The notes below the pieces were generated by a model. The model was not told the origin of the DNA, made no database searches, and worked only from the letters and a program-made list of their open reading frames with translations. 64,000 nt of DNA from Hericium rajendrae (Eukaryota > Basidiomycota > Agaricomycetes > Russulales > Hericiaceae), in contig CM065879.1 of assembly GCA_033439255.1 (NCBI GenBank), positions 3,230,501 through 3,294,500 on the forward strand, written 5' to 3'. A program made the position numbers and the translations under genes. Position 1 is the stretch's first letter. Each line of letters starts with the position of its first letter. Positions 29,343-55,357 of the stretch are shown here, piece by piece.

Positions 29343-32257
29343 CATCTGAGAAAAAGGATTTTTATATAGCAGCAAGTCCCATTATGGGCCCTGTCAGTGA
29401 GCTATAGAGGCTATGAGGCAGAACAGTCTAGCTATGAAGAGCTATGGGGAGCTATGATAGGCCCTATAGCATGAGGTGTTAAATACATAGGATGCCATAG
29501 CCTCTATAGCTTGGGGTGTCAAATGTATAGAAGTATCATAGTTACTTAGAGAAAGTATAGATACTATGGCTACTATATTCACTATTGTCAGCTAGCCAGG
29601 ACTCAAGACATTGAAGCAAAAAAAATTCTCATATTCAAGATACACTACCACAGACAAGAGCACTACCACTAACTATCTAGTAGGTAACAAATTGGGGGCC
29701 AGGAGAACCTGCATGAGCAGGTCACAGGCTGGAGGCATCGGACAGGCGCGCACTGTCCGGGCACACGAACGAGCGCACGGGCAGGCGCGCACTCGAGCGG
29801 GTAAGCACGCACTGTCGGCATGCATAAGCATGTGTCGGCAGTGCGCAGCGCACCTTCCAGGGCATGCGTGAGCAGGCACGCTTAGTGCGAGCATGCGCGC
29901 CAGCATAGACATGCGCGGCTGCGTGCTCGCATGAGAGTGCATACGCGCACGTCCCGAGGGAACACACGCGCAGTCGGGGCCTCGGTCTTCGCACGCTCGC
30001 TGGGCCAAGCGCGGTCGCATACATTGGAGAGGCTGTCGGGGCGTTGCGCACATCGGGACTTCGCCCGGGTTTGCGCACCATGCACGGTCGTGCCCGGGCC
30101 TGCGTAAACGTGCGTGGCGGCACGCTCGCATGCAGGAGTGCGTGCGTGCGCTGGTGAGGCCGTTCGCACACGCACGGCCACGTGTCGTGTCTGCGAGCAC
30201 GTTGCCGGCGGCGTGGGGCATGCTGGCACATCCACACCATGCGGGGGCTCGCACGCGAGCCTGTTGAGGGCACGCGGTGTTGTCGTGGGCGTGCGATGGG
30301 CGCAGTGGCCGCGGCAGGCCGGGCAAGGGACCTCAAGTCGCACCTTGTTGCCGTAGCAACGAGGTGCGACGGTGGCGACGGCGGCGGGGGTGTTGAGGAG
30401 ATGGCGTGGCGGGCTCGGGATGTAGGCGTGGGTTGTTGGGGCCTCGCGCAGGCTTGCATGCCGTGCGTCACCATACGTGATCGCGCAGGAGTGCGTACAC
30501 GTGCTGGCTGGCCTGTCCGCGGGAGTGCATGGCCGGGCGCGCCTAGCCACGTGTCGTGGCCGCGGGCTTGTTGTCGATGGTGGGGAGGTGGTGATGCATG
30601 GGGTTGGTAAATCTGGTGAGCCCGCACGAACCTGTTGAGGACGTGCGGGTAATGTTGAAGGGATGCGAGGGCGCGGGCCAACGACATCACGCCCCGTTGC
30701 CACGGCAACGAGGTGCGACAACGTGGACGCGGACGCCGTTGTCGGTGAACGGGGCAACGGGAGGGAGGCTTGAGGCTCGTGGGCGTGGGCATGGGCATGA
30801 GGAAGGTGACACGCAGAGGGTCGGGGCTGCCGACGACGTGTTCGAGAGGCAGGCGGGGCGCTGGCGACATGGCGGAGGGAAGGCGATGCGAGGGAGGAAG
30901 TCGGGGATGGGATGATTGAGGCATCGTGGATGTCGAAGAACGAGAGTATCGCTCGTCGTTGACGAGCGATACTCCCTTTATTAGTACGAACAATTAGAAT
31001 AAAGACTAGTTTTACTTACCTAGTATCCTTCTATGCCCTCCTCGAGACCCTCCCGCGTATGATCCAACGAGTTAAAGCGAAGAGAAACGACGGAGGAACA
31101 AGGAGAGAGAGGAGAGTGGTGGTAAGTATGAGAGTCGAACTTCGACGCACCTTCGGTGCTTCAGCTACCAAACGCGCGCGAGTTCGAACGTTTCGAGCCT
31201 AGTAAATCAAATCAAATGCTTTAAATTCTGAAAAAAAGACAACAGCAATAATTGATCTATTACATCGAATCGTATGAGGTGAGTATCTAACTAAGCTACT
31301 ATACGCTACTGGGTAACGAAGTGAACTTAGCAAAATCTGGCACTTAGCCTCTGATGCGAGTGCTTGGCACTGCCCGGCCCGGTCTCGGCAGCCACATTTG
31401 GCGCTCCGCTCGCCACGTCTATATAAGGCCTGCGCGACGCGCTGTCTCTCTCTCTTCTCTACCACTACCATCTCCTGTCTTTCGTCATTCGCTCCTCTTC
31501 TACTCTAACCTTCTTATGTTCGGTAGGTTACTGTATTGTTTTCTTGTCCATTAACCCTAATATTCTTTTATAAACTTTATATTTTCGCTTTTTCTTTTCT
31601 TTGGTATGTCTTATGTTTCATATATATACCTTTTGTCTTGTACTAATTTATTAACCTACTTTTAGATCATGTTTTCGCTTTTTTCTTATCTTTGTGAGAT
31701 AAGTTTTATCTTATGTTTTATATCTTATCTTATCTTTTATCTTATCTAACTTAAGTTGATTATAAGTTACTATCTGTTGTAGTGTATTGTAGTTTTGTAT
31801 TAATGTATTGCAATGAGATATTGTTTATAACATAATGCTTTCAAATTTTCGATGTTTTGAGTGCTTCAAATATAATAAGACAGATTTATGATTTTTTTGA
31901 TATTTTTTGATATATTTATAGTACTTCTGAGTGACATATTTGATAGAGATGACATAGGGTAGATAGAAATTTAGATACCTAGATATAATATGATAGTAAG
32001 TATATATCATATAGCTAACATAGCTCTTATAGCTATCCTATCCTATGGTAGCTATAGCAGCTATGATAGCTTATGCTCTATACTATGATAGCTACCATAG
32101 CTACCATAGCTACTGCCTGATCCTATGGTAGCTATGTAGCCCTATATAGATTACCTTGCTGCTATAGAATGGCTATGAAGAAAAGGGGACTGCTATGGCC
32201 CTATTAGAACTATGTAGGCTATATAGTGCAATATACCTCTGGTGTTTTTCTCAGATG
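29343..32257 (+). mobile_element. CATCWG element D (2915 bp), empty site known
   Basis: Termini CATCTGAGAAAAAGG and TTTTTCTCAGATG, target duplication AC (29341-29342, 32258-32259). Copy 2 of the duplicated unit has the unoccupied CTACACCTCATG at ~45908. Modules: CTATAG repeats, GC-rich array (29700-30900) with two RFX-like palindromes (GTTGCCGTAGCAAC 30347, GTTGCCACGGCAAC 30697), hairpin 30942-30975, minus-strand donor near 31018, stem-loop 31150-31200, TATATAAGG 31420, microexon-like AT tail, CTATAG repeats. Minus-strand frames up to 423 codons in the array are not credible genes. Confidence 0.93.
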
Positions 32258-33317
32258 ACCTCATGCCAGCTCACTATGCCTCATGTTCACTGGTCACACC
32301 CTATGCTGGTCTACCACATCTTGATGTACCTTGTGGATGGGCCAGTGACAGCTTAGAGATGACTACAGCTGAATGTGAGCATGTCAGCCAGCACAACTAT
32401 ATACATGCATTGTGTGTTGCTATGTGCAGGTGTGTCACCTGCCTGTACCTTGTGCCTCATGCCTCATACACAGACATACCAAGCCATGCATAGGCTTAGT
32501 GCCTTATGCATGCTTATCATGCTACACTACATCTTGCATACAAGCCACCATCCTATAGATGCTTACTGTACTTCATGTACAGGCCCACAGCATCTTGACA
32601 CTCTGCACATACTTGCAGCACCCTGTGCATGGCCACCACACCCTGTTGATCTCCTGTACAAGCTAGTAGCAGCCTTACATATGGGCCTGTATGCCTTATG
32701 CTCACCCTCTATGCCTCATGCATGGCTCTCAATATCTCACACATCCTCACTGCGCATTGCATCTTATATATAGGCCCACTACAGCTTAACATTGGTGAGC
32801 ATGGCCACTGGACCTCCTGCACAGCTATGACACTTATCATGCCTTGTGCATGAACCTAGTGCCTTATGCACATATGTACTTTTGTTGTGCCTTACCAGTG
32901 CACACATGCCTGCACATAGCTCTACCTGTACATGATGTGTACCATTGTGCATGTGTGCACTGTTTGAACTTGTAATATACTTGATTGTACTAGTAGCTGT
33001 ATGAAATATAATTGATTTTGGCTTTATATCTCTTGTACCTGATTGATCTGAGACAGTACTAATAGCAGGGATCATAGTAGGGACCATATAGATCAGAGCA
33101 AGCCTTTGAATTTATATGATTTGTACAACAACTACAGCTATCTTTCAGAAACATGTAGCACTATATAGTGTCCAACTACTGTTATGATAGCTATGATAGG
33201 CCTCATAGTCTTACATAGTTGAGAACTGTGATGGCATAAATAGTGATAGACCTTATAGTGCTATGATAAAACATATAGATCAATACTGGGCTATATGAAA
33301 TTTCAATTTTTCAGATG
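32258..33317 (+). repeat. Old CATCWG right half in the duplicated unit, copy 1
   Basis: CATGC-rich, CpG-poor minisatellite (32260-32960, unit near CACCCTGTGCATGGCCACCA), the conserved GTAATATACTTGATTGTAC block (32970), CTATAG repeats and terminus AATTTTTCAGATG at 33317. The same sequence is at 46321-47374, so this insertion predates the duplication. Confidence 0.8.
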
Positions 33318-34120
33318 ATACACACTACACCAACTCATATATGCACTCTTGGCTCACATTTTTTGACCTATGCATACTTTTGTTGATTAGCTTACACATG
33401 TATCAACCTATGAGCATCACAACAAACTTATGTATGCTTCTACTACCTCATACATTTCCTGTTAGCCTGTGCACCTTCTATTGATTTGTATACATTGCTG
33501 CTAGCACCAAAGACAGAATTTAATTTCTATATTTGGATTTTTTTCTGACTTTTACAAAAAATAACATAAATCATACCAGTTTTTTTTTAAAATAGAGCTT
33601 ATATCTCTTCAATGTATAATCTAGTCAGTATTTTTCTATTTTACATGCATAAAATACTATAAAAATTGAATTCTTACCTTCAAACCATATTTTGTATACT
33701 GGCAGAAATTAGTGACCAAATATGGCAACTACTTTCTGGTAAAATTGCCTGTCGATTAGCATGAAGGTTTAGAGTAACAAAAAACTTATACAAATGCCTG
33801 AGAGCATTAATTGTGCAAACATCACTTTAAGTATATTAGGGTTCAACACAAGTGCACTCGTGGGTGATCTAGATTTGAACTCGCAGGTATTCTATCTGTC
33901 CAAGGTGCTGACCTGGATCCATGCAGATTTGCACCACTGGGTGATCTGGAGCTGCAGGTCAGGTATCTGTGACATCACAGGTCACTTGCAAGTCAGTTGG
34001 TCTGAAAGTTGTGTCTCACTTTTACGATGCCCTTCTCTTTGTTTCTTCATCTTAATCCTCCCCTTTTTACCATATCTCCTCAATTCAATGGCAGGATGGG
34101 TGTTATGGAGATTCAAGAGG
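33318..34120. repeat. AT-rich section and GCAGGTCA block, copy 1
   Basis: 33318-33800 is AT-rich and unrecognised. 33830-34010 is rich in GCAGGTCA/CAGGTC and resembles, inverted, 35590-35790 in the same unit. Both parts recur at 47375-48060. No gene is seen. Confidence 0.5.
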
Positions 34121-35070
34121 CTTCTAAGTGAGTCCAAAAGCCTTTTATTTCATTGTACTGTACTGATCTCAGGAGTCTCACTCGATAACAGGCAAGGCTC
34201 TCATTTTTCACTGTTCTTCCACAGGTTTCATGATGTTTGATGGGTTTCATAACATCCCACCATTTTTTGACATCATCCACCATATTTCGTGTACCATCTG
34301 TGCTTCTCCCATCGTCCTCATCAACAGGTCAACCAGCCAACCGGCCCTTACCCATCTTCGACAACCAGTACTCATGTGTACCAGAGATTTAATTCCCACT
34401 CACAACAGTAAGAGCATGCACAGTGCCAGTCTAGCGCTGCAACTGCAAGGCCCACAATGCTTGTCAGGTCTTGTTGCTACAGCATTGTTGCTACAACAGC
34501 AAGGCTTGACATCTTTTTGCTGATCATCCGAGCAGTGCCTAGCATGCCTCAACAATGCGCAGTTGTCTACAAATAGCTTTGCATATCCTTGCATGTCTGA
34601 GACAGTGTGCATCTACCAATACATGCCCTGCCAGCATACACATTTTTGACTACATGCCCCCACCATCCCATAGTCCATTGCTCAAACTACATGTGTGCAT
34701 TCATGCCCATGGACATCACACATGCCACTATGCATGTCGTCATATCATTCGTCTGACAGAAGCCCAATGTGAGGCAAGTTTTATATGCCATTAGTGCTAT
34801 TCAACAATCAAAATGCACCCTCCCCGGTCTCATTCCCAATTTCCATCCAAGCTGGTGATGTCATTTGTGTGTGCATGCCCACAGCTATGCCAGTACACCA
34901 GCACCCACATATGCTTCCCTTGCACATGTGCCAGCCCATGTGCACACACATACTTAAAGCTGCCCCACCGACATGCACATACCCATGTCGATGCTACAAG
35001 TATGTCGTATGCAGCCTTTTGAATCCATGCCTTGCTTGTAGACTTTATACACTTCATGGGTATGACAAGA
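34121..35070 (+). repeat. Intron-hairpin-array module, copy 1
   Basis: Donor AAGTGAGTCC near 34127, branch-like TACTGAT and acceptor CTCAG, then the hairpin 34172-34202, then a CpG-poor CATGC-rich array to about 35010 with a double GTTGCTAC...GTTGCTAC palindrome at 34464-34510. This is the left half of a CATCWG element and recurs at 48180-48958 plus 52276-52440. Confidence 0.65.
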
Positions 35071-35126
35071 TATAGTGATAATGTGCATATGTGATTGGAG
35101 CTGTAAGTTAGTGTTGGCAGATGACA

Positions 35127-35527
35127 CATCAGGAACCTTCAAAACTTTCTGATGGATCCTGCAGAGTCTGATCAACTGCAAGACCTGATTCAGCTGCAGG
35201 CTCTAATTAGAGGACAATTTCTGATCAGAGATTTTATATTTTGAAGTTAATAACTATTGGCAGATATAGTAGTCATCCAACTCTAATCATTAGATGCAAC
35301 AAAGTTTTCAATATCTAAAATTTATATGAATCTGATCAGTTCTGATCAGTCTGCAAGCATTCTGCATTGATACTTTTTTGAATCTTAAGGTCAAATATTC
35401 TGCAGCTAGCTGAGAGTAGCTGATGCTGTCTGAGAGTGTCTGATGTGTCTGATGCAACTGCTGCAGATCATGCAGACACTGTCAGATGCCTCGCAGGTCA
35501 AACAGAAAGTTTTGAAGGTTCCTGATG
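35127..35527. mobile_element. 401-bp MITE (family M401), copy 1
   Basis: Ends CATCAGGAACCTTC and GAAGGTTCCTGATG, target duplication CA. The other duplicated unit has GATGGCATATAG without it (55427), so the empty site is seen directly. Three more copies of exactly 401 bp lie at 40565, 45920 and 61504. The halves form one long imperfect palindrome. Confidence 0.95.
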
Positions 35528-35820
35528 CATATAGTATGTAGTTAGTTAGGGATCACGACATATAGATTTGAACTTTGCAATATAATATGTTAACCAGAAT
35601 AAAGTTATAGCAGGTTACCCACAGGTCACTCACAGGTCAATGGGTTTGAGCACAACCTTGATCTGGATTTGTACAGGTCTCAGCCACCAGGTGATCTAGA
35701 TCTACAATTTAGATACCTGCAGGTCAATTTTATGGGTATACCCGTGTTGACCTACAGGTGACTCTGACTTGTGTCGAACCCTAAAGCATATAAAAAAACA
35801 CTATTTAATCTAATCTAATC

Positions 35821-36066
35821 ATGAGTAGTTCAGCTCCTACCTCTGATAACTCTATATTTTTTGCTATGTTATATATCTTAGTACCTTATTATATATATAA
35901 TCTGGTATGTAATACAGTACACACTTGTCATATCTTATTATACTCAGCTCGATATATGATATACACTATTATATATGCTTATATTATAAATACTTGCAAT
36001 ATCTACAATTATAATAGTAGTCTAGTTGTATGTCTAATCAAACAAGATTCAAGATTGAATATATGA
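35821..36066 (+). CDS. 81-codon frame conserved between duplicated units, copy 1
   Basis: Starts MSSSAPTSDNS, then a Tyr/Ile/Cys-rich hydrophobic stretch, ending KQDSRLNI. Copy 2 at 55721-55966 has the same length, start and stop with about nine residue differences. An upstream GCATATAAAAAAA could be a TATA box. The Ser/Thr-rich start resembles many transposon frames, but the rest is AT-driven and no family is recognised. It may be the remnant of a longer gene. Confidence 0.25.
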   Translation: MSSSAPTSDNSIFFAMLYILVPYYIYNLVCNTVHTCHILLYSARYMIYTIIYAYIINTCNIYNYNSSLVVCLIKQDSRLNI

Positions 36067-36123
36067 TCAATGTCAAACATTGTATTGTTGAACAAAGCTA
36101 ATGGCCAATCACATGATCAATAG

Positions 36124-36904
36124 CAGACCTTGTTCGGCCACACAAGGTCTGGTGGCTGTGCTTAGCTTATGTCAGCAGTAGTTGATGTTGTGCTCTCTGC
36201 TCTCTCTTCTTTTCTTCAGATAGCTTTGAAGTCAGTGTGACACTACCAGTAGTGCACACTAACTACAAAGCTTGGACACGCCCAGTCCCCATCTGCAGCG
36301 AGTTGCGGCTGAGGTGTCCAATGATGGTGTGGGGCCATCACCAACTTTCTGCTGATGATGTGGCATAGAGATCAGGCCATAGAGCTCTCAATACCACATC
36401 AATCAGAATGAGTTAAAGCTTGTTAGAATCAGATTTACAATAGCTCTAGAATAGTGCCACAAACAACAAAATAGCATGACAAAATGCTGACCTATTGGAC
36501 TATATGTCTATGATGATGTGGCAGACTGTTTGCTTTATAGCTCTGCTGATACTGCATCAATCATGATGTATGAGGGCTTGTTGAACTCAGATTTACAATA
36601 GCTTTCTAACAATACAGTGTACAACATCATAGCACCATTGGTTGTTGAGATAGGAGACAATACTGTTTTGCTAATATAGCATATAAATCGAAGAATATCT
36701 CTGCTTACAGTGATCCGATTTTCGTATTCTAAATTGGGTTGGAAAGATGTAATCCAAGATATATGAACACAATTTACCGTTTGTCGATTGATTGCTTTGT
36801 TGCAGAGCTATAAAGCAATCACTGTATACAGTGTATTGGCTCTCTAACCGACTTATGCTTATGTAAGCAGGTGCTAAGACCTTGTTCGGCCGCACAAGGT
36901 CTTG
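36124..36904. repeat. ~780-bp segment with palindromic ends, copy 1
   Basis: Bounded by GACCTTGTTCGGCC-ACAAGGTC palindromes at each end, with inverted GCTTAGCTTATGTCAGC / GCTTATGTAAGCAGGTGC next to them. Copy 2 is 56028-56813. It may be a separate small element in the repeat body, since the inverted relative at about 6855-7455 shows the same ends. Confidence 0.45.
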
Positions 36905-37097
36905 TAAGATCACATGACCGAGTCTCAGGACCCACTGCTACCGATAAATTGCATTTTTTGCTCATTTTATCAATAAACAGTATGTACATTTGTTTGCTGT
37001 GTATCATTTTAGTGGCTGTATCTTTCTATAAGCAGTAAATTATGTTAGAGACCAGCTTTCTGGTATATTTGGATGTAATTGAGAACAAGTGAATCGG

Positions 37098-38572: not shown

Positions 38573-39080
38573 TGTAACGGGGCAGCATTACTTTTGTAGA
38601 GTTTCCTAGCCTTATGCTATGCATGTATCTAGGGTTAGGGGTCAGCCCAGATATGGTGCTGGGCTTGCTTAGTAATATGACAATCACTTCTTCTCATCCA
38701 CTACTTGGCTCGAGCACATACGCTCCCTCTCGCCTTCGGGCACTCTCCCTTTTTAGGGTTTCTCTCTTTTTCTGACACCTCTCTCCCTCGCGCCCCATTG
38801 CCCAGGGTCCCTCGTCAAGTAAGCAGGGGACGTAGGACTCTCTGGCTTTCTGGTCGCATGCAGAAAGGTTGCCTTCTGTGCGTAGGCAGGCTGACCTGGA
38901 GATTAGCCTTGCTAGCACACAGTCTCTCTATTACTCTTGCCTTTCAGTCCTCCAGACCTCTCGGGCAAGGGTGCTCTCTCCTGACTCGAGCGCCAGCTCA
39001 TCACACGCATCACACCATAGCAACCCTCGCCAGCTCCTTCGGGGCAGATTCACGACCCTTGTAGCAGTTCTCCTGTTACA
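38573..39080 (+). repeat. LTR of a second retroelement family (508 bp)
   Basis: TGTAACGGGG start and CTCCTGTTACA end, with TGTAAC/GTTACA inverted ends. It interrupts the KDZ transposase reading frame, which begins right after it. Diverged partial copies lie at 58668-58733 (plus) and about 60715-61050 (minus). Older than the chromovirus of 9113-16795. Confidence 0.75.
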
Positions 39081-41390
39081 GATTCTGTAACACCGACTAT
39101 GCGTTGATGTCCGCCTTGATTGAGTCTAGCAGAATTCCTTACATCAAATTCAGCTACAACATCTTTTGTCAGTATAAAGTCAAGCTCCTCAAGCGTGTAG
39201 ATGCCCATTTTCCAGAGATGAAAGATATTGCCGCACGGATCGAAGGACTTGTGCCGAAGTTGCATATCATGGGCCACACTGAGGACTGCCAATTACAATT
39301 CTCTTTCAATACAACCTCCCACATTGGCAGAACGTTTGGGGAGACGATTGAAACGGCATGGGCCGAAGGCAATCAGACGGCAGGAAGCACCAAGGAGATG
39401 AATGCAGGTCATCGACATGACATCTTAGACGATTTCCATGGGTACTGGAACTGGCAGAAGGTTATCTCGATGAGTACATTCTGATATTTCCAAGAACGAA
39501 TGCCATATCTCATATTAGTTTAGCTCGGTCCCTGTATCAGCGTCACACAAATGCAGCGGCAATGTTTCATCGGAATAATACTACGTTCGAGGCGCTCTGC
39601 GCATGACATGGACAGGTGTTGGTTTCCCAATGGTCCGCCATGGACTGCAAGCCAGTAGTTGTCAATGGGAAAGTGACTAGTGTTTATGCATCGAAGGCGA
39701 GGAAAGGTATGTCTTCCTTGCATTTTTGCTCATCTTTGTCGAGTGGCCTGATGGACAACTTAGGCCCACCAACGCAATTCTCGAAACTTCAAGAACTACT
39801 CCAGGATGAGACTGTTCGCACTCTCAGCGACCAAGGGACTGTGGGAGTAGTTGCGATGGTCAATGATGGGTTACGTCTTGAAGCAGAACAGTGAGTGCAG
39901 GATTTATATCACTACTCTTTTGTTCTGATATCTGGCAGAGCACGTCTGCAGGTATTGGCATCCATCAAAGTCCGCACGCCTGCGGAACAGGAGCGTTTAG
40001 ATGTAGGCCGACTCAAATTTCGTAATGAGCTTGACCGTTGGCGGCAGCGTCAAGTCACAATGTTTTCCAGCCTTCGTATGTTTCTCAATGTTAACGATGA
40101 TGAAGAGCCCGAAGACATCAAGTTATTGCTGCTGTCATCTTTCAATGAACCTACTCGGAAGGCTCAAGGTCTTGGCGATGCAGAGTCGGTGGAGTACAAC
40201 TTACGTGTTGGTCAAGCACATGATGCCCTCCGCGACGTCCAGCATGCGATCAAGATGTTCAATTACAACCTCAAATTCAAGAAATCCAACATCTTCGACC
40301 AGGGTCCAACGACGTGAGCTCAGGCATTCCTTCGTGACCTCAAACGTGATCAAGTCAGCGCAGCTGACAAATATTGTTGTGCTCGTGCTGTGCTAGTGAG
40401 TTTGGGTCTGGCCGAGGATGATGTGGTGTTGCAGCCATTACACAACGAGGACCTTTGGATGAAAGACACCACTCGACCTCGGCAGATTGGTAAGTGACAT
40501 GTTAGATCATAAGCTGCATTGTCCTGACTTTGCAACCAGGTGATACAGCGAAGCCGGATCCTTGCATCAGGAACCTTCAAAACTTTCTGTTTGACCTGCG
40601 AGACATCTGACAGTGTCTGCATGACCTGCAGCAGTTGCATCAGACACATCAGATACTCTCAGACAACATCAGCTAATCTCAGCTAGCTGCAGAATATTTG
40701 ACCTCAAGATTCAAAAAAGTATCAATGCAGAATGCTTGCAGACTGATCAGAACTGATCAGATTTATATAAATTTTAGATATTGAAAACTTTGTTGCATCT
40801 AATGATTAGAGTTGGATGACTACTATATCTGTCAATAGTTATTGATTTCAAAATATAAAAGCTCTGATCAGAAATTGATCTCTAATTAGAGCCTGCAGCT
40901 GGATCAGGTCTTGCAGTTGATCAGACTCTGCAGGGTCCATCAGAAAGTTTTGAAGGTTCCTGATGTGGTTCTGGACAGTAATTGGTCTATCAGCGCTGAC
41001 CGAGGAAGAACAAGCCGAATGGAGCATGGAGAGTACGCCGAGTTCATGTTTTTTCATCCTTCCCTGTCTTGACACTGATGCGATATGCACTAGGTGAACG
41101 TGTCAAATGGTTCCGCGATCGAGCAGACTGCCAACGCTGGCGAGAAGAAATTGATATAACTGATCAAGAATTCATAAACACATGACGTTCGCACACAACA
41201 ATGAGCAAGGCCTGGATGGTCTTGGCCTCCGAGGCAATGACACGTGGTGCTAGAGCGTACGCCCACAAGCACAGGTCGATGTACGAGTGATTGGCCCAGG
41301 ATGCAGCTACTTTCCATGCAAGGGCACTTAAAAAGGCTAAATTCCCTGATGTATGTCCTGTGCTTGAACAATATCGCCCGTTAGCTGTCA
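39081..41390 (+). pseudogene. KDZ-type (Kyakuja-Dileera-Zisupton) transposase remnant
   Basis: Readable as a basidiomycete KDZ transposase: TDYALMSAL, then FSYNIFCQYKVKLLKR, LVPKLHIMGH, FSFNTTSHIGRTFGE, STKEMNAGHRHDILDD and NWQKV (39090-39470). It continues through RSLYQRHTNAA (39530), VGVVAMVNDGLRLEAEQ (39840) and LQVLASIKVR to NYNLKFKKSN (39945-40300). The distal part reads KWFRDRADCQRWREE (41105) and AYAHKHRSMYE (41260). Introns with good GT-AG sites remain, for example 39892-39938 and 40491-40541. The amino-terminal half is missing behind the LTR at 38573-39080. At least four in-frame TGA codons are present (near 39605, 40315, 41185 and 41288), several placed where the family has Arg (CGA). 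A 401-bp MITE splits it at 40565-40965. It cannot make an active enzyme. Confidence 0.88.
40565..40965. mobile_element. 401-bp MITE (M401), copy 2, inside the KDZ remnant
   Basis: CATCAGGAACCTTC to GAAGGTTCCTGATG, target duplication TG. Orientation is opposite to the copy at 35127 and the same as 61504. KDZ-like coding sequence resumes directly after it (FWTVIGLSALTEEEQ). Confidence 0.95.
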
Positions 41391-43205: not shown

Positions 43206-44290
43206 GGGTAGTAGCAGCTCAACCTTTATTGTCTGTTACACGATGCATGAAGAGGTGTGCATAGAGGTGAGGAAGTGGGCATAGGCATGAGGAGGCATGT
43301 ACAGATAGCAGCATGCAAGGCAATGTGTAAAGTCCTACACACAGGCATGCTGTTCCAACTCTAGGGAGTATGATGCTGTGTGCACCCAAATGTGTGCTGG
43401 CAGAAGCAAGGTGCAGACGTGCAGGTGGTGCAGTGGTGAAGAAGGTGGGGTGAGGCACACAAGTTGAGCCTCATTACCATGGCAATAGGACTTGTTGTTA
43501 TTGTTGTTGTTGTTATTGTTGAGAGAGTGGGAAGGAGGTGGGCTCATGGGCATGAGTGCAGGCATCATAGATGAAGGATGGTGTGGTGGTGGTGGTGGTG
43601 GTCCTGCAGTGTCAAAAGATGAGTATCATTCATGTAAAACATGAACAATATTTATTTTGTTAGCACAATACAAGTGAGAAGGACTGGTTTACTTATCTAA
43701 ATGCCCTTAACATACTCAATAGCCCTTCCAAATGTCAAACAATGCAAGAAAGAGCAAGATGTCATGTAGGAGGGAGGAGTGAGTTGAGATGAGAGGAAGA
43801 ACAAGTCATGCATTCAAGCTTCAAGTGCTTCAGCCACAGAGCACTCGACTTATGCAGCTGATGTTTCTTGAGCACAACAATTTGAATAAAATGCTTTTAA
43901 GTTTGGAAAAAAGACTACTGCTACGGAGTGTACATATGATTTGATTAAATAAGAAGATATTCTGGCTAGTGTACTACTGTAAGCTATTGAAAAATGAAAA
44001 CAACTTAAAGAAGTCTGACATTTAACCTTTATTGTGACATCTGGTAATGCTCAGCTCGGTGCTTGGCAGTCACATTTTGGGCCTCACTGGCAATGTCTAT
44101 ATAAGACTTGTACAATGCATAACCTTTCTCTCTCTTTAACCTCCATCATCTCCTGCTTTTGCAGTCTTTGTTCACTTGTTGCATTTGTTCTCTAGGCCTC
44201 TAAAGTAAAGCCTCTTATGTTTCTTATGTTTCTCACTCTAATGTTCTTATCTTTCTAGTTAATTTGCATTTTTTTGTAGTCATAGCAAGA
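43206..44290 (+). mobile_element. CATCWG element J, old and end-less
   Basis: Short array (43220-43570) containing RFX-like ATTACCATGGCAAT (43473), decayed hairpin 43621-43651, minus-strand donor near 43690, stem-loop AAGTGCTTCAGCCAC (43820), TATATAAGA 44098-44106, and one microexon-like TTTGCATTTTTTTGTAG (44264). No CATCWG termini are seen, and CpG is nearly absent. Confidence 0.65.
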
Positions 44291-44740: not shown

Positions 44741-45600
44741 CCATTACACATCGTGTTCACCTCCTTCCACCAGCACATACCCAAGACTGTGTTGTCATGG
44801 CCACTCCAGCTCTGTAGGCTATGCATGTCCCCACCAGTACACCTCTACTTGCACACACCTGCGTGCATCTCCAGCACCATAGACATGCTTGTGCATGTCT
44901 TTGATGCTGTGCACAGGTCCACACATGTCATCAACATCACATGCAGGCCCATGCACATCAGGAACCCTTACAACTTTCTGATTGTCTAATTCTATCTGAT
45001 TCTAATCTGAGTCTAATCCGATTGAATCTGATTAAATCTGACTGAATCTGATTGATCTGTAATCTTTTTACAGATTAATCAGATTTCAATCAGACCATTA
45101 GAAAGTTGTAAGAGTTTCTGATGCACGTCTTCAGCACTGTGTGCATGCTTGTGCATGTTGTTAACACTGTACACATGCTTGTGCACATTGTCAACACATG
45201 CCTGTGCACATCTCCAGCACCATGCAGAGGCCTGCACATGTCTCTAACACTGCACACATGGCATCTCTGCATGCTCCCAGCACTATGTACACACCTGTGC
45301 ACTTTTCCAACATTGTACACAGGTCAGTGCACATCCTAAACACCATGCTTCATATTGCGCACATCTCCAACACTGCACTAGGCCTGCACATGTCCCCAAC
45401 ATGATGCACATGCCTGTGCTTGTCTTCAACATCATGTGCAGGCCAAGCATGTCTCCAACACCATGTGTATGCTCGTGCACATCCTCCACATTGTGTATAT
45501 GTCCATGCACGTCCTCGAAACTGTATGATGCCCCTGACACCATGTGCACACTAGCACCCATGCATATCCATGTAACCCAGCCCCTGCACTCCTTGTGCAT
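44741..45600 (+). repeat. ~31-bp CATGC-type minisatellite
   Basis: Units close to CTGTGCACATCTCCAACACC with ACCATGCACAGG between them, period about 31 bp, CpG-poor. Related in motif to CATCWG arrays but with a longer period. Interrupted by the MITE at 44956-45123. Confidence 0.75.
44956..45123. mobile_element. 168-bp CATCAGG MITE
   Basis: CATCAGGAACCCTTACAAC to GTTGTAAGAGTTTCTGATG, target duplication CA. Same family as the inner MITE at 57805-57930. Confidence 0.9.
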
Positions 45601-45919: not shown

Positions 45920-46320
45920 CATCAGGAACCTTCAAAACTTTCTGATGGACCCTGCAGAGTCTGATCAACTGCAAGACCTGATCCAGCTGCAGGCTCTAAT
46001 TAGAGATCAATTTCTGATCAGAGCTTTTATATTTTGAAATCAATAACTATTGACAGATATAGTAGTCATCCAACTCTAATCATTAGATGCAACAAAGTTT
46101 TCAATATCTAAAATTTATATAAATCTGATCAGTTCTGATCAGTCTGCGAGCATTCTGCATTGATACTTTTTTGAATCTTGAGGTCAAATATTCTGCAGCT
46201 AGCTGAGAGTAGCTGATGTTGTCTGAGAGTATCTGATGTGTCTGATGCAACTGCTGCAGGTCATGCAGACACTGTCAGATGTCTCGCAGGTCAAACAGAA
46301 AGTTTTGAAGGTTCCTGATG
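45920..46320. mobile_element. 401-bp MITE (M401), copy 3
   Basis: Target duplication TG. The unoccupied site CCTCATGCCAGC is visible at 32260-32271, which confirms both the boundaries and the 2-bp duplication. Confidence 0.95.
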
Positions 46321-48958
46321 TGCCAGCCCACTATACCTCATGTTCACTGGTCACACCCTATGTTGGTCCACCACATCTCGATGTACCTTGTGGATGGGCC
46401 AGTGACAGCTTAGAGATGGCTACAGCTGAATGTGAGCATGTCAGCCAGCACAACCATATACATGCATTGTGTGTTGCTAAGTGCAGGTGTGTCACCTGCC
46501 TGTACCTTGTGCCTCATGCCTCATACACAGACATACCGAGCCATGCATAGGCTTAGTGCCTTATGCATGCTCACCATGCTACACTACATCTTGCATACAA
46601 GCCACCATCCCATAGATGCTTACTGTACTTCATGTACAGGCCCACAGCATCTTGACACCCTGCACATGCTTGCAGCACCCTGTGCATGGCCACCACACCC
46701 TGTTGATCTCCTGTACAGGCTAGTAGCAGCCCTACACATGGACCTGCATGCCTTATGCTCACTCTCTATGCCTCATGCATGGCTCTCAATATCTCACACA
46801 TCCTCACTACCCATTGCATCTTACATATAGGCCCACTACAGCTTAAAATTGGTGAGCATAGCCACTGGACCTCCTGCACAGTCATGATGCTTGTCATGCC
46901 TTGTGTATGAACCTAGTGTCTTATGCACATATGTGCTTTTGTTGTGCCTTGCTAGTGCACACATGCCTGCACATAGCTCTACCTGTACATGATGTGCACC
47001 ACTGTGCATGTGTGCACTGTTTGAACTTGTAATATACTTGATTGTACTAGTAGCTGTATGAAATATAATTGATTCTGGCTTTATATCTCTTGTACCTGAT
47101 TGATCTGAGACAGTACTAATAGCAGAGATCGTAGTAGGGACCATATAGATCAGAGCAAGCCTTTGAATTTATGTGATTTGTACAACAACTACAGCTATCC
47201 TTCAGAAACATGTAGCACTATATAGTGTCCAACTACTGTTATAATAGCTATGATAGACCTCATAGCCTTACATAGTTGAGAACTGTGGCTGCATAAATAG
47301 TGATAGACTTTATAGTGCTATGATAGGATATATAGATCAACACTAGGCTATGTGAAATTTCAAATTTTCAGATGATACACACTACACCAACTCATATATG
47401 CACTCTTGGCTCACATTTTTTTTATCTATGCATACTTTTGTTAATCTGCTTACACATGTATCAACCCATAGGCATCACAGCAAACTTATGTATGCTTCTA
47501 CTACCTCATACATTTTCTGTTAGCCTGTGCACCTTTTATTAATTTGTATGCATTGCTGCTAGCACCAAAGGCAGAATTTAATTTCTATATTTGGATTTTA
47601 TTTCTGACTTTTACAAAAAATAACATAAATCATTTGTAAATCATACCAGTTTTTTTAATAGAGCTTATATCTCTTCAATGTATAATCTAGTCAGTATTTT
47701 TCTATTTTACATGCATAAAACACTATTAAAATTGAATTCTCACCTTCAAACCGTATTTTGTATACTGGCAGAAATTAGTGACCAAATATGGCAACTACTT
47801 TCTGGTAAAATTGCCTGTCAATTAGCATGAAGGTCCAAAAAACTCATACAAATGCATGAGAGCATCAATTGTGCAAACATCACTTTAAGCATATTAGGGT
47901 TCAACACAAGTGCACTCGCAGGTGACCCAGATCTGAACTCACATGTATTCTATCTGTCCAAGGTGCTGACCTGGATCCATGCAGATTTGCACCACTGGGT
48001 GATCCAGAGCTGCAGGTCAGGTATCTGTGATATTACAGGTCACCTGCAAGTCAGTCGGTCTTGAAGTTGTGTCTCACTTTTACGATGCCCTCCCCTCTGT
48101 TTCTTCATTTTAATCCTCCCCTTTTCACCATATCTCTCCAATTCAATGGCAGGATGGGTGTTATGGAGATTTGAGAGGCTTCTAGGTGAGTCTGAAAGCC
48201 TTTTATTTTATTGTACCATACTGATCTCAGGAGTCTTGCTCGATAACGAGCGAGGCTCTCATTTTTCACTGTTCTTCAACAGGTTTCATGATGTTTGACA
48301 AGTTTCATGACATCCCACCATTTTTTGACATCATCCATCATATCTTGTGCACCATCTGCACTTCTTCCATCGTCCTCATCAACAGGTCAACTGGCCAACC
48401 AGCCCTCACCCATCTTCGACAACCAGCACTCATGTGCACCAGAGATTTAATTCCTACTCACAACAATAAGAGCATGCACAGTGCTAGTCTAGCGCTGCAA
48501 CTGCAAGGCCCACAATGCCTGTCAGGTCTTGTTGCTACAGCATTGTTGCTACAACAGCAAGGCTCGACATCTTTTTGCTGATCATCTGAGCAGTGGCCCC
48601 CTAGCATGCCTCGACAATGCGCAGTTGTCCGCAAACAGCTTTGCATATCCTTGCATGTTTGAGACAGTGCGCATCTACCAATACATGCCTATCAGCATAC
48701 ACATTTTTGACTGCATGCCCCCACCATCCCATAGTCCATTGCTCAAACTACATGTGTACATTCGTGCCCATGGACGTCACACACGCCACTATGCATGCCG
48801 TCATGTCATTTGTCTGGCAGAAGCCCAATGTGAGGCAAGTTTTATATGCCATCAGTGCTATTCAACAACCAAAATGCACCCTCCCCGGTCTCATTCCCAA
48901 TTCCCATCCAAGCTGGTGATGTCATTTGTGTGTGCATGCCCACAGCTATGCCAGTGCA
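46321..48958 (+). repeat. Duplicated unit middle section, copy 2
   Basis: Matches 32260-34895: old array, CATCWG terminus AAATTTTCAGATG at 47374, AT-rich section, GCAGGTCA block (47890-48060), intron, hairpin 48231-48260, and array with the GTTGCTAC double palindrome at ~48530. No genes beyond array artefacts (165 and 132 codons). Confidence 0.85.
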
Positions 48959-49362
48959 CATCAGGAAAAACCGCAAATCCATCAAACATGCTTACCGATC
49001 ATCAGAAGTTTGATGGGCGCTACTGATGTCAGATTAGCGCTACTGATCTAGACTTAGTGATGTAATAGAAGAATCATGACCACTGTAATTTAGCCGTAGC
49101 TTCTGTAGCACGTAATTATGCAAGGCACATTTTGATCAAGGAATCTGTAGACGTCATCTACCTGCTGTAGCTATGATGCGCCTGCTGTAGCTGCGGTAGA
49201 CAACGTATTAACATGCATTATATCATCGACTTTAACTATTCTATGATTCTTATATACATATACCATTAGTCAGCAACAAAAATATGATATATATGATCAA
49301 CTCTTATAAGTTTACTTAAGACTGTATAGAGTTGAGTGTTGCCGCATTGTGTGAGCAGCAGG

Positions 49363-49402
49363 ACGAAGAATGTTGCCCAAATATGGGCATGATTTGTCGT
49401 CC
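49363..49402. other. Decayed copy of the 40-bp palindrome
   Basis: Left arm has one change relative to 50454-50473, and the right arm has several, so the symmetry is partly lost. Confidence 0.85.
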
Positions 49403-50453
49403 CAAGTGTGGCTGTACTGGAGCGCTGCGACTCAACAAGTTGAAACATTGAAGTCCTGTCTCAAGGTAAGTTCACAGTATGTATTGATACTATTGCATAT
49501 GAAATTATAGGTTCTACTACTGCCCTTGCCTCTGGGCTTTGTATCTGGGCCTTGGCTCCAAAAAATGGTTCTGATAGGTACGTCAAATAATCTTCTGAAT
49601 CATAGCACAAATGTTTCTCTCTAGACCTCAAACCTTCGTCGATTTACACGATCTTGGCGTCGTTCGAATCATGCTCATCGTAGCTTTCGAACGAGCCCAC
49701 ATGCGAGGCATTTGGATAAGTATTAGGTGAGTTACTTGTCTTATTCTGATAGGTACTTACTGATAGAAGGATCTTGGCATAGCGCAACGAGCAGAGCATG
49801 TATCGGCTCGTATATAGGCTTGTTCGAATGCTATGACTCATAGCTTTCGAACAAGCCTATATATGAGTCGATCCAACCAGCCGTTGCTCCGCAGCAAGAC
49901 ATTCTCTCCTCCTGGTAAGGCGAAATTCGCCTTTTAGCGAATTTGTCATATCTCAATCAATACAGTACGTATCAACGACGTTTTAACAGTTTTGGAAAGC
50001 GCTGATTTATACCTTTCCAATAAGCCTACATACACGTCGATAGGACCAGGTAGCGCCACGAAACAGCAAGATCTCCTGGATGATGTGGCAAAACGTGTTT
50101 TTGCCATATCTTGGGATATATTGTACGTATCACAGCTCTCTTAGGCTCGGCGGAAAGTTCTAATTTGTAGCTTTCAGATAAGCCCTCATGCGTCCATATT
50201 GGTGGACTTTTCATTGCGCAAGGGACAAACTTGTCCCATCATCCCCCCTCCTAGGCGAGTTTTTTTTTCACTTTCTCAAATCTCCATCATTTTCTATGAT
50301 CTTAGGCTTATTTTGCTCACACAATACAGGGCTTTCATTTTATTATATTAATCAGGTAAGTACTGGATGTGTGGTACTGCAATATTGATACCTATGATTT
50401 CTTAGGTGTCACCTTGGAGGTTCCCACGCCCTCGGCAGAGCGGCACAGAGCAG

Positions 50454-50493
50454 GACGAAGAATCTTGCCCAAATTTGGGCAAGATTCTTCGTC
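50454..50493. other. Perfect 40-bp palindrome in element B
   Basis: Left arm GACGAAGAATCTTGCCCAAA, followed with no spacer by its exact complement. A degenerate copy (GACGAAGAATGTTGCCCAAA then ATGGGCATG...) lies at 49363-49402. Confidence 0.97.
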
Positions 50494-52275
50494 ACGTGGA
50501 GAGGGCGCGTGGTGCAGTGCGGTGCATGGGTGAGGCGCGACGTGGCATGGATGTGACTGTGGGTGCAATTCTGTGAGCGTATGCATGGCATAGCACAATG
50601 GATGGGCTTGTGGGTGAGGCGCAGCACAGCGCAGTGGACAGGCACATGGGCAAGGCATGGTGCAGTGCAGCAGGCAGGCACACGTGCACATCAGAGACAT
50701 GGGGTGCGAGCATGGGCACAGGATGCGGGCACACAGGTGAGGCGCAGCGCAGGCATGGTGCAATGTGTGGTCACATAGGCAGGTGCGGTGTGCAAGGCAT
50801 GATGCGGGAGAGGCAGGGGGCGAGCATGGTGTGGCATGCAAGCACAGGATGGGCGTGGGGTGGTAGGTGGCATGACACATTGGTGGGTGGCGAGGGGCAT
50901 GCGGTAGGCAGCGCGACGCATTGGTGGGTGGTGCGACGCATCGGTGGGTGGTGCGACACATGCGATAAGTGGGAGAGGCATGTGGTGGTGATGTCGAGGG
51001 GGGGCCAAAGCAGGAGGGGGCAGCGACGAGAAGTGACTCGAAGGGACAGGGAAGGAAATTGAGAGTATCACTCGAATAAGCGATACTCTCAGTGTTAGCA
51101 CAAATAAACAAAGAGATTTTTTTTTACTTACCTGCCAGGCCCTCATCATCCTATAACTGTCCACCAGTGTTTGATTCCACATGAAAGGGGGAGGAAGGAA
51201 GAAGGAGAGGAGAGATGGGAGGGGAGTTGATGGTAGCAGCTGCAAGAAACTTCAATGTGTGTTAAGTCGTTTAACCAATGAATGTGTGCGAGTTTGAATG
51301 TTTGTAATGTAGTAAATCAAATAAAATCAGGATAAATCTGAAAAAACAACAGTAGCTATATTTCATTAGTTTAATTCATTTGAATGATGAAACTATCTAG
51401 CTATTATACTATAAGCTATTGGAAAGCGACACGAACTTAGTGAAGTCTGCCGTCTTGGTCTCTGATGCAGCACCCGGCAGCACCCGGGCCAGGTTGCAAC
51501 AGCTGCATTTCGGGCTCCGCTCGTGATGTCTATATAAGGCATGCATGACGCGCAACCTCTCTTTCTTTCCAACCCCCATCATCTCTTCTGTCATTGACTC
51601 AAGCTTTTGCATGGTGAGTCTTCCTTTTCTTATGTCTAGTAATCTTTGTGCTTATGTCTTACCCTTACTATAGGTGTATACATTTTCGCTTTTTTAAAAA
51701 TTTTGGTAAGTCGCTTCTAGTCTTCGATGCTTCACTAACTAGCTTTTACTACTTGTTAGATATTGCTTTTTTTTGTGATGTACGTAAGTGTTCATTTGAA
51801 CCTTTTGTGATGACCTTTATTAATGTTTGTTTGTCTTACAGTCTCTATACTTTTGAATCCTCTCATAGTATAGCCTCTTATAGTACCATGTATTTGCTAG
51901 TCAATAAATTTTGATTGTTGTTTGATTAAATCCTTATGAACTGCATAAATTTTATTATTGACTTGGATGTTATATTGAGTGGTCAAGACCTGCAAATATA
52001 ACAGACTGTATATGTGCAATAAATCTATTGTAGCATGTATAGACTACTGTAGTTGTGGTAGCACATTATAGCATTTGTAGAAGATTGCACATTTTGAGAA
52101 CTTGACTTGTCTACAGTAGCAAACCTGTACTACAGTGAACTACAGTAGACAATATCTGTCTACTGTAGGTACGAAAAATAAGAAGAGTCCTACAGACACT
52201 ATGTCAACTACTCTGGCTACTGTAGCTACTGTAGCCAACGGTAGTTCACGATAGTACATACAGTTTTTCCAGATG

Positions 52276-52444
52276 CACCAGCACCCACACATGCTCCCCT
52301 TGCACATGTGTCAGCCCATGTGTGCACACATACTCAAAGCTGCCCCACTGGCATGCATACACCCATGTTGATGCCACAAGTATGTTGCATGCAGCCTTTT
52401 GAATCCACACCTTGCTTGTAGACTTCATACACTTCACTGGGGTA
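52276..52444 (+). repeat. Duplicated unit fragment between elements B and C
   Basis: Matches 34890-35060 (GCACCCACATATGC, CCTTGCTTGTAGAC landmarks). Left as a 169-bp island by the insertions on either side. Confidence 0.92.
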
Positions 52445-53814
52445 CATCAGAAAAATGTGTAAGTGGTACATAGCTCTATAAAGTCTATATAGATTTCATA
52501 GTTCCATAGCACTGCCCTTTTCTCTATAGCCAGCATAGCTAAAGAGGAATGCTATGTAGTGCTATGGAGCTGAAGAGTGATGCTATGGAGTACTATGATA
52601 GCTATGATAGCTAACTATGCAGCTATGATAGTATGACTAGCTATGAAAGCTATAAGTGTCTATCAAAGCTATAAAGCTTATATATCTTACATATTTTATA
52701 TTCAATATGTGTCTTACATATCTTATATTCAGTATGTAGACCTGATATATATATTGAAATCATAAAGTCTATTAGAACTATAAATCTTTTTACAATCATA
52801 TCAGAATTAGTGACATATAATCACACAGATATAAACTATTTCAATGCATCAAGATTATACTAATATTATAAACACTACTACTAACTAAAGAGCAAAACAA
52901 ATATATTTTTATTTTAAAAAAAGTAAGATAAGATAAGATAAGTGAGTAAGATAAGATGAATGAGTAAGATAAGATAAGATGAGTGAGTAAGATAAGATAA
53001 AGAAAAGAATATAAGAAACTATATAAGTAAGAAAAGATAAGAAATCATTAGTCTGAAAAGATAAAGATAACACATAAAAACTTACCAAAGTAACAAAAAG
53101 CGAAATCTAGAAGACAAACTTAAAGACATCAGTATTAGTATGAGCAATAAGAGACTAACAATAAAAGATTACCTTAAAGACAGCAACAACGAGCAAGAAA
53201 TGATGCTCAACGAGTAAGAGACAACGACGAGCAAGTAAGAGACAATGACGAGCGAGTAAGAGACAACGACGAGCGAGTAAGAGACAACGACGAGCGAGTA
53301 AGAAACGACAACGAGTGAGCAAAGGACGTCGACGAGTGAGCAAAGGACATCGACGAAGGCATCGACATGGCAGGAGACAGTGGGGGTTAGGAGCAAGAGG
53401 TAACGCGCGTCGCGCGAGCCTTATATACGAAGCTCGGGCAGAGCCGGGATTTGACGCTTGCCGAGCATCGCATCAGAGACTGGTGCCAGACTTAACTAAG
53501 TAGATTCTGCTACGCAAGGATGCAACGTATAGTAAATGGCTCGAAGTCTGACTAGTTTTGATTGTATGTACAATAGATAGTTGTTCCCTTTTTATTTGAA
53601 TTTATATGATTTTATTAGCTGAGTGAAGGCTCGAAATCTAAAGCTTCGACTCGTTCGGTGGCTGAAGCACCGAACCGCGCGTCGAAGTTCATCTCGACTG
53701 TCTTCCTCAACCACCCTGGCCACTCCTCCAGTCACCCTCTTTCCTTCATCCCTCCCCTCTGTCTCCCTTCAAAACAAAAGCCGCGGGGGATAAGTAGCAT
53801 GTAGAGGGGTTCAA

Positions 53815-53859
53815 GGTAAGTAAGAAATTTACCTTCTTTCGTTTGTTTTTGCTAATGCA
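53815..53859 (+). other. Conserved short intron before the hairpin (element C)
   Basis: GTAAGTAAG donor, GCTAAT branch-like site, TGCAG acceptor; 45 nt, a usual size for this genome (host introns 48-58 nt). The hairpin starts at the first exon base. The same donor-branch-acceptor-hairpin order is seen at 17335-17381, ~34127-34171, ~48187-48230 and 62297-62343, and on the minus strand in A, B, D and F. Confidence 0.7.
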
Positions 53860-53889
53860 GAGAGTATCGCTCATTCAAGCGATACTCTC
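53860..53889. other. Conserved GAGAGTATCGCTC hairpin (element C)
   Basis: 13-bp perfect arms GAGAGTATCGCTC and GAGCGATACTCTC with a 4-nt loop. Confidence 0.88.
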
Positions 53890-54965
53890 GACATCTTCCC
53901 CTTCGCATGCCCCTCCGTTCCTCTCGCCTCCCGCCACGTCTCCACATCATCGACTCACCCCCCGACATTGCCGCTACCACCGCAGAGACTGACGCGCTGT
54001 CTCCAACGACCGCGACCACGTGCACTAGCGCGTGCACACCACCGGACAACGCGTACGCAGGCCTGCTGCCTCGCGCATGGGCTTCGCCCCTCTCGCACGA
54101 CCTCGCCATCCCGCGTCCTGAATTGCTGCCTGGCGCATGGGCCAGCCACCTTGTGCGTGGCCTCCCCGTCTCGCGCAGGGGCCGACGCGCTGCACGCGAC
54201 CCCACCGTGGTCCGTGCGCATGGCCAGTGGGACAGGCAAGCACGCGCACATGTCATCCACAGCTGTGCGCAATCATGTCGCAGCCGACGCCTCACACGCG
54301 GGCTCCGCACGTCGTACTCCGCGTTGCCGTCCAGCATGCGGCTAGTGCGCCTCGCGCGCAGGCTTACCGCACCGTGCACGGACCCGCGGCAGCGTGTCGA
54401 CATCGCCAGCTCGCGTCACACTCCGGCACGCAAGGCTGCTGCATTGCGCATGGCCTCCGCGCCGCGTCCCAGCTCCTCTATCTCGCGCACGGGCCCGGCA
54501 TCTCAACCACTTACGCACAGGTCCCGGGCCTTGCGCATGCCCGCCACATCTCGCTCATGCCCCTCAACACACCACGCACGCACTCAGCACCGGCGCCGTC
54601 TCGCGTACACCATCCGCACCTCGTGCACGCCCGCCGCGGCCCTTGCACGTCCCTCGCGCCTCATGCATGGGCCCGCCGCCTGCCGCCCTTATGCACATTC
54701 CCCACGCCTCGCGTATGTGCCTGTGGCAGCACGGCACCCCCACGCATGGGCATCCGCATCTCGCGCACATACCCTATGGCCCTGCGTGAGCCCGCGACAG
54801 TCCGACATGTCGCGCACAGGCCCTGGGCCTCCACGTTTCCCGTGCGCAGTCCGCGCTCTTGCGCACGAGCCCCGAGCTTCGCACGTGGCCGACGCGTCTC
54901 ACACGCAGCGTCACGCACACCAGCTGTGCCTTTGTGTGGTGCATGCTTTGTTGTACCCCGCGGGC
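53890..54965 (+). repeat. GC-rich ~20-bp minisatellite of element C
   Basis: Units near CTCGCGCATGGGCCTGCCGC, all three plus-strand frames open for long stretches (357, 294 codons). CpG-rich, hence young. The translation is Arg/Ala/Pro/His-rich and of no recognised family. Confidence 0.8.
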
Positions 54966-55357
54966 GCACGTGTCACGTAGTATACTTGTTTGTAGTAGTA
55001 ATTAAATATAATCAAATTTGACCTGTTTCGAGTATATTTTGCTCGAAATCATAGACTCTACACTGACTACAGATATTATAGCAGCCTGAGGGTCCATAGT
55101 AACCTTTAGAAGCTCTGTATGGAACATAGTCTCTATAGGATACATAGAGGTAGACAGAGGATACATAAGTTACATAGTAGGCATAGTAGTGTCCTGTTAC
55201 TATGTAATACTATATACCCATCACCTATGACTATGATAGCTATGATAGCTACCATAGTCCTGTATAGATGTGTGGCCCAACTACATAGTAGCCATAGCAC
55301 TATGAAACCAGACATAGCATTGGCTGGCAGCTATGTAGATTTCACATTTTTGAGATG

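What the first reader, a model, noticed from the sequence alone, without database searches (positions are those of the whole stretch)
29343..55357. CATCWG elements: a ~3-kb modular family moving with 2-bp duplications
Elements A, B, C and D (2.9-3.3 kb) share CATCWG inverted ends, subterminal short repeats, a minisatellite, a hairpin, two opposed transcription modules and 2-bp target duplications (TT, CA, TA, AC). For B, C and D the unoccupied site is present elsewhere in the window, so ends and duplications are observed directly. None encodes a recognisable transposase. Subterminal repeat clusters and 2-3-bp duplications fit the CMC/EnSpm-like superfamily best, but that is inference. I know of no described family with this module set.
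Basis: partly seen in the sequence, partly recalled or inferred. Interest (0 to 1): 0.9.

Follow-up and report, generated by a model that had tools for sequence, protein, structure and literature searches.

The report
Non-autonomous fungal transposons with conserved hairpin
This stretch of what is probably mushroom DNA holds many 3-kb jumping elements that seem to borrow another element's enzyme to move, yet keep the same two-way promoter and a hairpin beside a predicted intron whose letters change while its folding is preserved.

Summary
The observation largely holds. Four complete 2.9-3.3 kb elements (17986-21095, 29343-32257, 48959-52275, 52445-55357) have CATC-type inverted ends and exact 2-bp duplications (TT, AC, CA, TA). 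Unoccupied sites are present for three of them and two small relatives. Further partial copies and nine miniature elements use the same kind of ends; one has a 3-bp duplication. Kojima 2025 gives 5'-CATCA..TGATG-3' ends and 2- or 3-bp duplications for the fungal lineage PlavakaB (CMCT group), so the CMC guess was close and the ends are described. No Plavaka transposase appeared in 80 ORFs scanned, and most 3-kb ends read CATCT, so membership stays open. New here: a ~600-bp core, found eight times plus one partial copy, with a TATA promoter one way, a predicted intron the other way, and beside its branch point a 13-14 bp hairpin with compensatory changes. The GC-rich arm is probably non-coding; copies range from CpG-rich to CpG-depleted. 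Transcription, splicing and the hairpin's role are inferred from sequence. New variant of a known kind; moderately interesting.

The parts
17986..21095 (+). Element E, complete, 3110 bp, dup TT, nested inside element H
29343..32257 (+). Element A, complete, 2915 bp, dup AC, 13-bp perfect TIR CATCTGAGAAAAA
   Evidence: unoccupied site 45893-45920
48959..52275 (+). Element B, complete, 3317 bp, dup CA; different subterminal repeats and an extra ~1.1-kb left module
   Evidence: unoccupied site 34853-34940
52445..55357 (-). Element D, complete, 2913 bp, dup TA
   Evidence: unoccupied site 35020-35105
23552..26244 (+). Element F: left end, arm and core; right end not found, so the end given is only where I stopped
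16846..22027 (-). Element H: left end at 22027, core 17407-16846, split by E; right part cut off next to the Ty3 LTR (that these pieces are one element is inferred)
43621..44161 (+). Core of decayed element I
   Evidence: 169 bits
61393..62379 (-). Core of decayed element J, with the 401-bp element 61504-61904 inserted at its TATA box
32264..33317 (-). Left end and decayed arm of element G (duplicate at 47374-46321)
48088..48264 (-). Partial core K (duplicate at 34205-34058); hairpin found by a model not built from it
30938..31025 (-). A: predicted intron donor, branch point and hairpin (same unit in B 51057-51137-, D 53810-53893+, E 19722-19803-, F 25194-25279-, H 17332-17413+, I 43615-43702-, J 62290-62379+, K 48180-48264+)
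31420..31428 (+). A: TATA box TATATAAGG of the opposite module (B 51531+, D 53427-, E 20200+, F 25693+, H 16949-, I 44098+ TATATAAGA)
29700..30930 (-). A: GC-rich arm, probably non-coding (E 18340-19720, D 53900-54985, B 50400-51055, F 23950-25190)
35127..35527 (.). 401-bp miniature element, dup CA, CATCAGGAACC ends
40565..40965 (.). 401-bp miniature element, dup TG, about 1.1 kb downstream of the KDZ match
45920..46320 (.). 401-bp miniature element, dup TG
61504..61904 (.). 401-bp miniature element, dup TA
10626..11206 (.). 581-bp miniature element, dup CC, inside the Ty3 element
58734..59314 (.). 581-bp miniature element, dup AGG (3 bp)
60126..60338 (.). 213-bp miniature element, dup CA
44956..45123 (.). 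168-bp miniature element, dup CA
28816..29106 (.). 291-bp miniature element, dup TA; TIR score 7.5, below the rule's threshold

Best explanation
The 3-kb elements and the small CATCAG elements are non-autonomous DNA transposons, most likely moved in trans by a PlavakaB-type DDE transposase encoded elsewhere in the host. Insertion with a 2-bp (rarely 3-bp) target duplication is shown by matching flanks and unoccupied sites; excision and the transposase are inferred. Each 3-kb element keeps a ~600-bp divergent promoter core. One side has a TATA box 387-418 bp from a splice donor that faces the other way. The other side is predicted to make a spliced, C-rich, probably non-coding transcript. A stem-loop sits directly after that transcript's branch point and probably influences which downstream AG serves as 3' splice site. 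The core was kept by selection on source copies while the arms diverged. Old copies lost CpG, as expected under host cytosine methylation.
For: Ends and duplications: 12 of 28 rule-selected pairs have exactly 2 bp, 1 of 28 has 3 bp; five unoccupied sites among 15 candidates. PlavakaB = CATCA..TGATG with 2 or 3 bp TSDs (PMC12730594 section 3.2). Targets are YR dinucleotides in 9 of 12 (my count, a test chosen after seeing the data; 11 rule-selected pairs without 50689, plus 28816-29106); binomial P 5e-4. Core: a profile from five elements finds three further cores at 150-240 bits. Donor-branch-hairpin alignment: CTAA in 8 of 8, AGGTRAGT in 7 of 8. Hairpin: 92.7% of 110 cells paired, 6 of 14 pairs with changes on both sides; slid partners 26-48%. 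A covariance model finds a ninth copy not used to build it, E 1.6e-6. The next AG after the hairpin is further away than composition predicts, combined p 0.0018 over nine cores. Arm ORFs not longer than Markov sequence in four of five arms. CpG o/e of arms 1.14-1.23 (A, D, E), 0.56-0.70 (B, F, H), 0.03-0.09 (G, I, J); E lies inside H, in line with that order.
Against: No Plavaka transposase in the 80 ORFs scanned, and no host genome to search. 12 of 14 ends of the 3-kb type read CATCT, not the published CATCA; 11 of 13 if G's duplicate is left out. Hairpin: the number of further pair types is not exceptional (149 of 500 shuffles reach it), the structure was derived from these same sequences, and wobble cells favour neither strand (9 GU against 8 CA), so selection could act on DNA. 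In B, I and K the next AG is close, 15-24 nt. F's arm ORF is reached by only 19 of 300 Markov sequences. CpG is not age alone: the 401-bp element is CpG-poor (0.07) though its copies are 95-99.5% identical, and the right arms of the CpG-rich elements A and E are CpG-poor (0.21, 0.13). No RNA data.
Confidence: 0.7

Rival explanations
1. The 3-kb elements belong to another, undescribed DDE lineage (CMC or otherwise) whose CATCT ends only resemble PlavakaB, while the miniature CATCAG elements are true PlavakaB derivatives.
For: 12 of 14 ends of the 3-kb type read CATCT, all 7 miniature ends listed read CATCA, and the ends differ beyond position 6.
Against: B has one CATCA and one CATCT end and D has one CATCA end, on otherwise homologous elements; duplication length is the same in both groups.
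Confidence: 0.17
2. The arms encode real, fast-evolving proteins, so the elements are gene carriers rather than non-coding.
For: Long open frames on the arm strand in all five arms (243-507 aa stop to stop); an ATG 16-18 nt after the hairpin in A, D and H; F's frame exceeds most Markov sequences.
Against: Length expected by composition in A, B, D, E. No Pfam match. 20-bp periodicity, not a multiple of 3, in D, E, F. No ATG in the first 45 nt after the hairpin in B, E, F, I, J.
Confidence: 0.12
3. The core is a promoter captured from a host gene pair or another element and carried passively; its conservation reflects common ancestry only.
For: Promoter-like content; such captures are known in Pack-type elements (recalled).
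Against: Local alignments that include the core are only 59-68% identical, yet donor, branch point, TATA and covarying stem pairs are kept. An arm profile reaches only 10-24 bits outside the five elements it was built from, against 150-240 bits for the core; the left ends, however, are also well kept.
Confidence: 0.15
4. Segmental duplication or assembly artefact rather than transposition.
For: A duplication of [29146-37103] and [45697-57011] underlies the comparison.
Against: Inside that duplication single elements are present or absent with clean 2-bp duplications at five sites; elements also sit outside it.
Confidence: 0.02

Closest known systems
PlavakaB lineage of Plavaka DNA transposons, CMCT group (Kojima 2025, PMC12730594)
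   Same: CATC..GATG ends, CATCA in the miniature elements; 2-bp duplications with one 3-bp case; probable mushroom-type host
   Different: No transposase found in the elements; most 3-kb ends CATCT; the divergent promoter core with hairpin is not mentioned in the parts I read
EnSpm/CACTA
   Same: Same CMCT group; subterminal repeat clusters (recalled)
   Different: CAC..GTG ends and 3-bp duplications for the fungal EnSpm families described in the same paper
KDZ (Kyakuja, Dileera, Zisupton)
   Same: A broken KDZ transposase lies in the window; Kyakuja ends are CA..TG
   Different: 7- or 8-bp duplications; here 2 bp
Pack-type and other non-autonomous elements with internal non-transposon sequence (recalled)
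   Same: Ends kept, inside unrelated to transposase
   Different: Here the inside is itself a homologous, conserved module rather than varied host fragments

Membership tests
PlavakaB | Termini 5'-CATCA..TGATG-3' | tested here: inconclusive
   Met by all 7 miniature ends listed; of the 3-kb type only B left and D right have CATCA, 12 of 14 ends are CATCT
PlavakaB | 2- or 3-bp target duplications | tested here: met
   12 of 28 pairs exactly 2 bp, 1 of 28 3 bp; five unoccupied sites
PlavakaB | Plavaka transposase (pfam18759 named in PMC8290104) in the element or a partner | tested here: inconclusive
   None in 80 ORFs given to Pfam; one search counts 480 stop-to-stop pieces of 50 aa or more, so most short ones were not scanned; partner genome not held
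PlavakaA | TGT..ACA ends | tested here: not met
   CATC..GATG ends
EnSpm/CACTA | CAC..GTG ends with 3-bp duplications | tested here: not met
   CAT..ATG ends; 2-bp duplications but for one 3-bp case
KDZ | 7-8 bp duplications | tested here: not met
   2 bp; the KDZ match at 39065-39481 lies outside the four complete elements
Tc1/mariner | TA target only (recalled) | tested here: not met
   AC, CA, TT, TG, CC as well as TA

The most novel reading that the evidence does not exclude
A transposon family that lacks transposase but carries, under long-term selection, a divergent promoter and a structured hairpin between branch point and 3' splice site; its non-coding spliced transcript or open promoter is needed for the element's own mobilisation or for escape from methylation.
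Probability: 0.25. Interest if true: 0.75.

Novelty: new variant of a known kind. Interest (0 to 1): 0.5.

Why it matters
Non-autonomous transposons are usually seen as ends plus filler. Here a ~600-bp internal core with splice signals and a covarying hairpin is kept across copies that are only 59-68% identical, which suggests that the core does something for the element. Copies at graded stages of CpG loss, with nesting that agrees with that order, could also help to time CpG decay in such a genome.

Tried and rejected
KDZ as the mobiliser: a KDZ transposase piece exists in the window, but KDZ duplications are 7-8 bp, so rejected. Wobble asymmetry to tell RNA from DNA hairpin: 9 against 8, inconclusive. 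A second dyad (GTTCGGTG..CACCGAAC) in the core: conserved CTTCAG loop but few clean compensations, weak (one search used a wrong register and was dropped). A GTTGCC..GGCAAC palindrome noticed in several arms: 9 matches against 6.08 expected, not significant. Rfam at gathering thresholds: no match. tRNA scan: none. Hairpin pattern, exact, in viral contigs and genome contigs: no match; core of E against phages and the 401-bp element against plasmids: no match. These collections are viral, prokaryotic or plasmid, so this says nothing about fungi. Literature on secondary structure between branch point and splice site: one listing seen, nothing opened; that idea is recalled. In one search the automatic TATA hit for J (61708) lies inside the inserted 401-bp element and was dropped; the value printed for I means that no proximal AG was found.

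Papers: PMC12730594: outline and abstract, passages, sections 3.2 and 4.2. PMC9674265 and PMC8290104: passages. Other titles: listings only. Supplements, including the figure of Plavaka ends, were not read.
Full report
What the window is. No whole genome is held for it. It looks like basidiomycete DNA, by inference: a SacI-domain gene in pieces at the left end (Pfam Syja_N in two ORFs), a Ty3 element with a 1333-aa frame and chromodomain and identical 423-bp LTRs, and a broken KDZ transposase. I do not know the host's name.

The elements. Self-comparison shows a duplication, [29146-37103] against [45697-57011], whose two copies differ by single insertions. Four complete 3-kb elements have inverted CATC ends and 2-bp duplications: E 17986-21095 TT, A 29343-32257 AC, B 48959-52275 CA, D 52445-55357 TA. 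Joining flanks and searching the window was done for 15 candidates. Five gave convincing unoccupied sites: A (28 bases aligned, limited by the 401-bp element next to its empty site), B, D, and the 401-bp elements at 35127 and 45920. Of the other ten, E and the 213-bp element gave only 16-17-base matches and eight gave none.

Chance. A rule with CATC ends, TIR score of at least 9.5 and length 120-4000 bp gave 28 pairs: 12 with exactly 2 bp, 1 with 3 bp, 4 with 1 bp, 11 with none. The rule was fixed after an exploratory list. I discount 50689-51467, whose right end is the conserved TCTCTGATGC of B's core. With the window's dinucleotide composition the chance of 12 or more of 28 is 7e-8 (that pair included). 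The other 255 tetranucleotides together give 287 of 2662; TATA alone gives 13 of 62. CATCWG as a hexamer is only mildly enriched (138 against 115 expected), so the signal lies in the paired ends, not the motif.

What family. Kojima (PMC12730594, section 3.2) states that PlavakaB families make 2 or 3 bp duplications and end 5'-CATCA..TGATG-3', and places Plavaka in the CMCT group. The nine miniature elements (four of 401 bp, two of 581 bp, and single ones of 213, 168 and 291 bp) fit in the ends listed and in duplications. The 3-kb elements fit in duplication length, but 12 of 14 ends of their type read CATCT (11 of 13 without G's duplicate). No Plavaka transposase was found: 80 open frames were scanned with Pfam, two of them from Ty3, while one search counts 480 stop-to-stop pieces of 50 aa or more. 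I therefore file them as non-autonomous elements with PlavakaB-type ends, transposase untested.

The core. A profile built from five cores recovers those five and three more (H 240 bits, I 169 bits, J 150 bits), and weakly a ninth, K (30 and 24 bits), in two duplicated copies. TATATAAG is found in A, B, D, E, F, H, I; in J a 401-bp element sits at the TATA box (read), and K's match does not reach it. It stands 387-418 bp from an oppositely directed donor in the six cores with both. Reading that other way: AGGTRAGT donor in 7 of 8 (I has AGATAAGT), CTAA in 8 of 8 (K has CTGAT), then at once a stem of 13-14 pairs. 92.7% of 110 cells pair and 6 of 14 pairs change on both sides; 0 of 500 shuffles reach the pairing and the covariation score, 2 of 500 the number of doubly changed pairs, but 149 of 500 the number of further pair types; slid partners pair in 26-48% of cells. 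These controls lean towards the structure because it was taken from the same sequences and they are related. E, H and J each show a compensatory change not explained by CpG loss (against the commonest pair: T-A to C-G, A-T to G-C, A-T to C-G; cells). The covariance model finds K, not used to build it, at E 1.6e-6 and its duplicate at 1.8e-4 (E-values rough).

What the hairpin may do. In eight of nine cores an AG stands 5-7 nt after the branch A, at the foot of the stem; I has none. That is very close for a 3' splice site (general knowledge). After the stem follows a pyrimidine-rich stretch (0.60-0.82 in 50 nt against 0.55-0.64 in the arms), and the next AG is further than composition predicts (combined p 0.0018; individually weak in A, B, E, F, I, K). 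K and I have acceptor-like sites 22 and 15 nt after the stem. I infer that the stem lies inside the intron and brings a distal AG near. An exonic hairpin that starts at the proximal AG is the alternative. Wobble counts do not tell RNA from DNA (9 against 8).

The arms. The arm on the hairpin side is GC-rich in A, D, E. Its longest open frame is reached by second-order Markov sequence in 106, 66, 102 and 291 of 300 trials for A, B, D, E, and in 19 of 300 for F. Periodicity of 20 bp stands out in D, E, F and in G's decayed arm, less in B, H, J, not in A. No Pfam match. I read the arm as non-coding. CpG o/e falls from 1.14-1.23 (A, D, E) over 0.56-0.70 (B, F, H) to 0.03-0.09 (G, I, J) while TpG+CpA stands at about 2 in the decayed arms. 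E lies inside H, and A stands against G's decayed arm, so nesting agrees with decay as age. Against a simple clock: the 401-bp element has CpG o/e 0.07 though its copies are 95-99.5% identical, and the right arms of A and E are CpG-poor.

Verdict. Main observation confirmed, some shared features not; interpretation partly supported; new variant of a known kind. The bold reading, a selected non-coding RNA or promoter module needed by a transposase-less element, is not excluded and is testable with RNA-seq and the host genome.

Noticed in passing
39065-39481 (+): Broken KDZ transposase (PF18758, E 5e-34); a 401-bp CATCAG element lies downstream at 40565-40965.
   Followed up: partly
9113-16795: Ty3 element with identical 423-bp LTRs and a 1333-aa frame with RT, RNase H, integrase and chromodomain: a recent insertion, next to core H.
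   Followed up: partly
10626-11206: A 581-bp CATCAG element (dup CC) sits inside that Ty3 element, between the LTR and the gag frame; either it moved recently or it travelled with the Ty3.
   Followed up: no
49361-49402 and 50454-50493: Two copies of a second, unrelated hairpin (GACGAAGAATCTTGCCC..) bracket a ~1.1-kb extra module in element B (read by eye; one search also lists the second).
   Followed up: no
5772-6153, 56971-57481: 158-bp tandem repeats, related to each other across the window.
   Followed up: no
53211-53356: 21-bp repeat, 7 copies, in D's right arm just past the TATA side; by eye it is open in one frame and F has a related stretch.
   Followed up: no
31560-31760, 20340-20540: By eye: short repeated exon-like units around ATTTTCGCTTTTT followed by GTAAGT-like donors in the AT-rich right arms of A and E.
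   Followed up: no
22028-22298, 58455-58550 (by eye): Ty3 LTR remnants directly outside two left ends: elements seem to have inserted into solo LTRs.
   Followed up: no
1-4845: SacI-domain (phosphoinositide phosphatase-like) gene in several pieces, probably a host gene.
   Followed up: no
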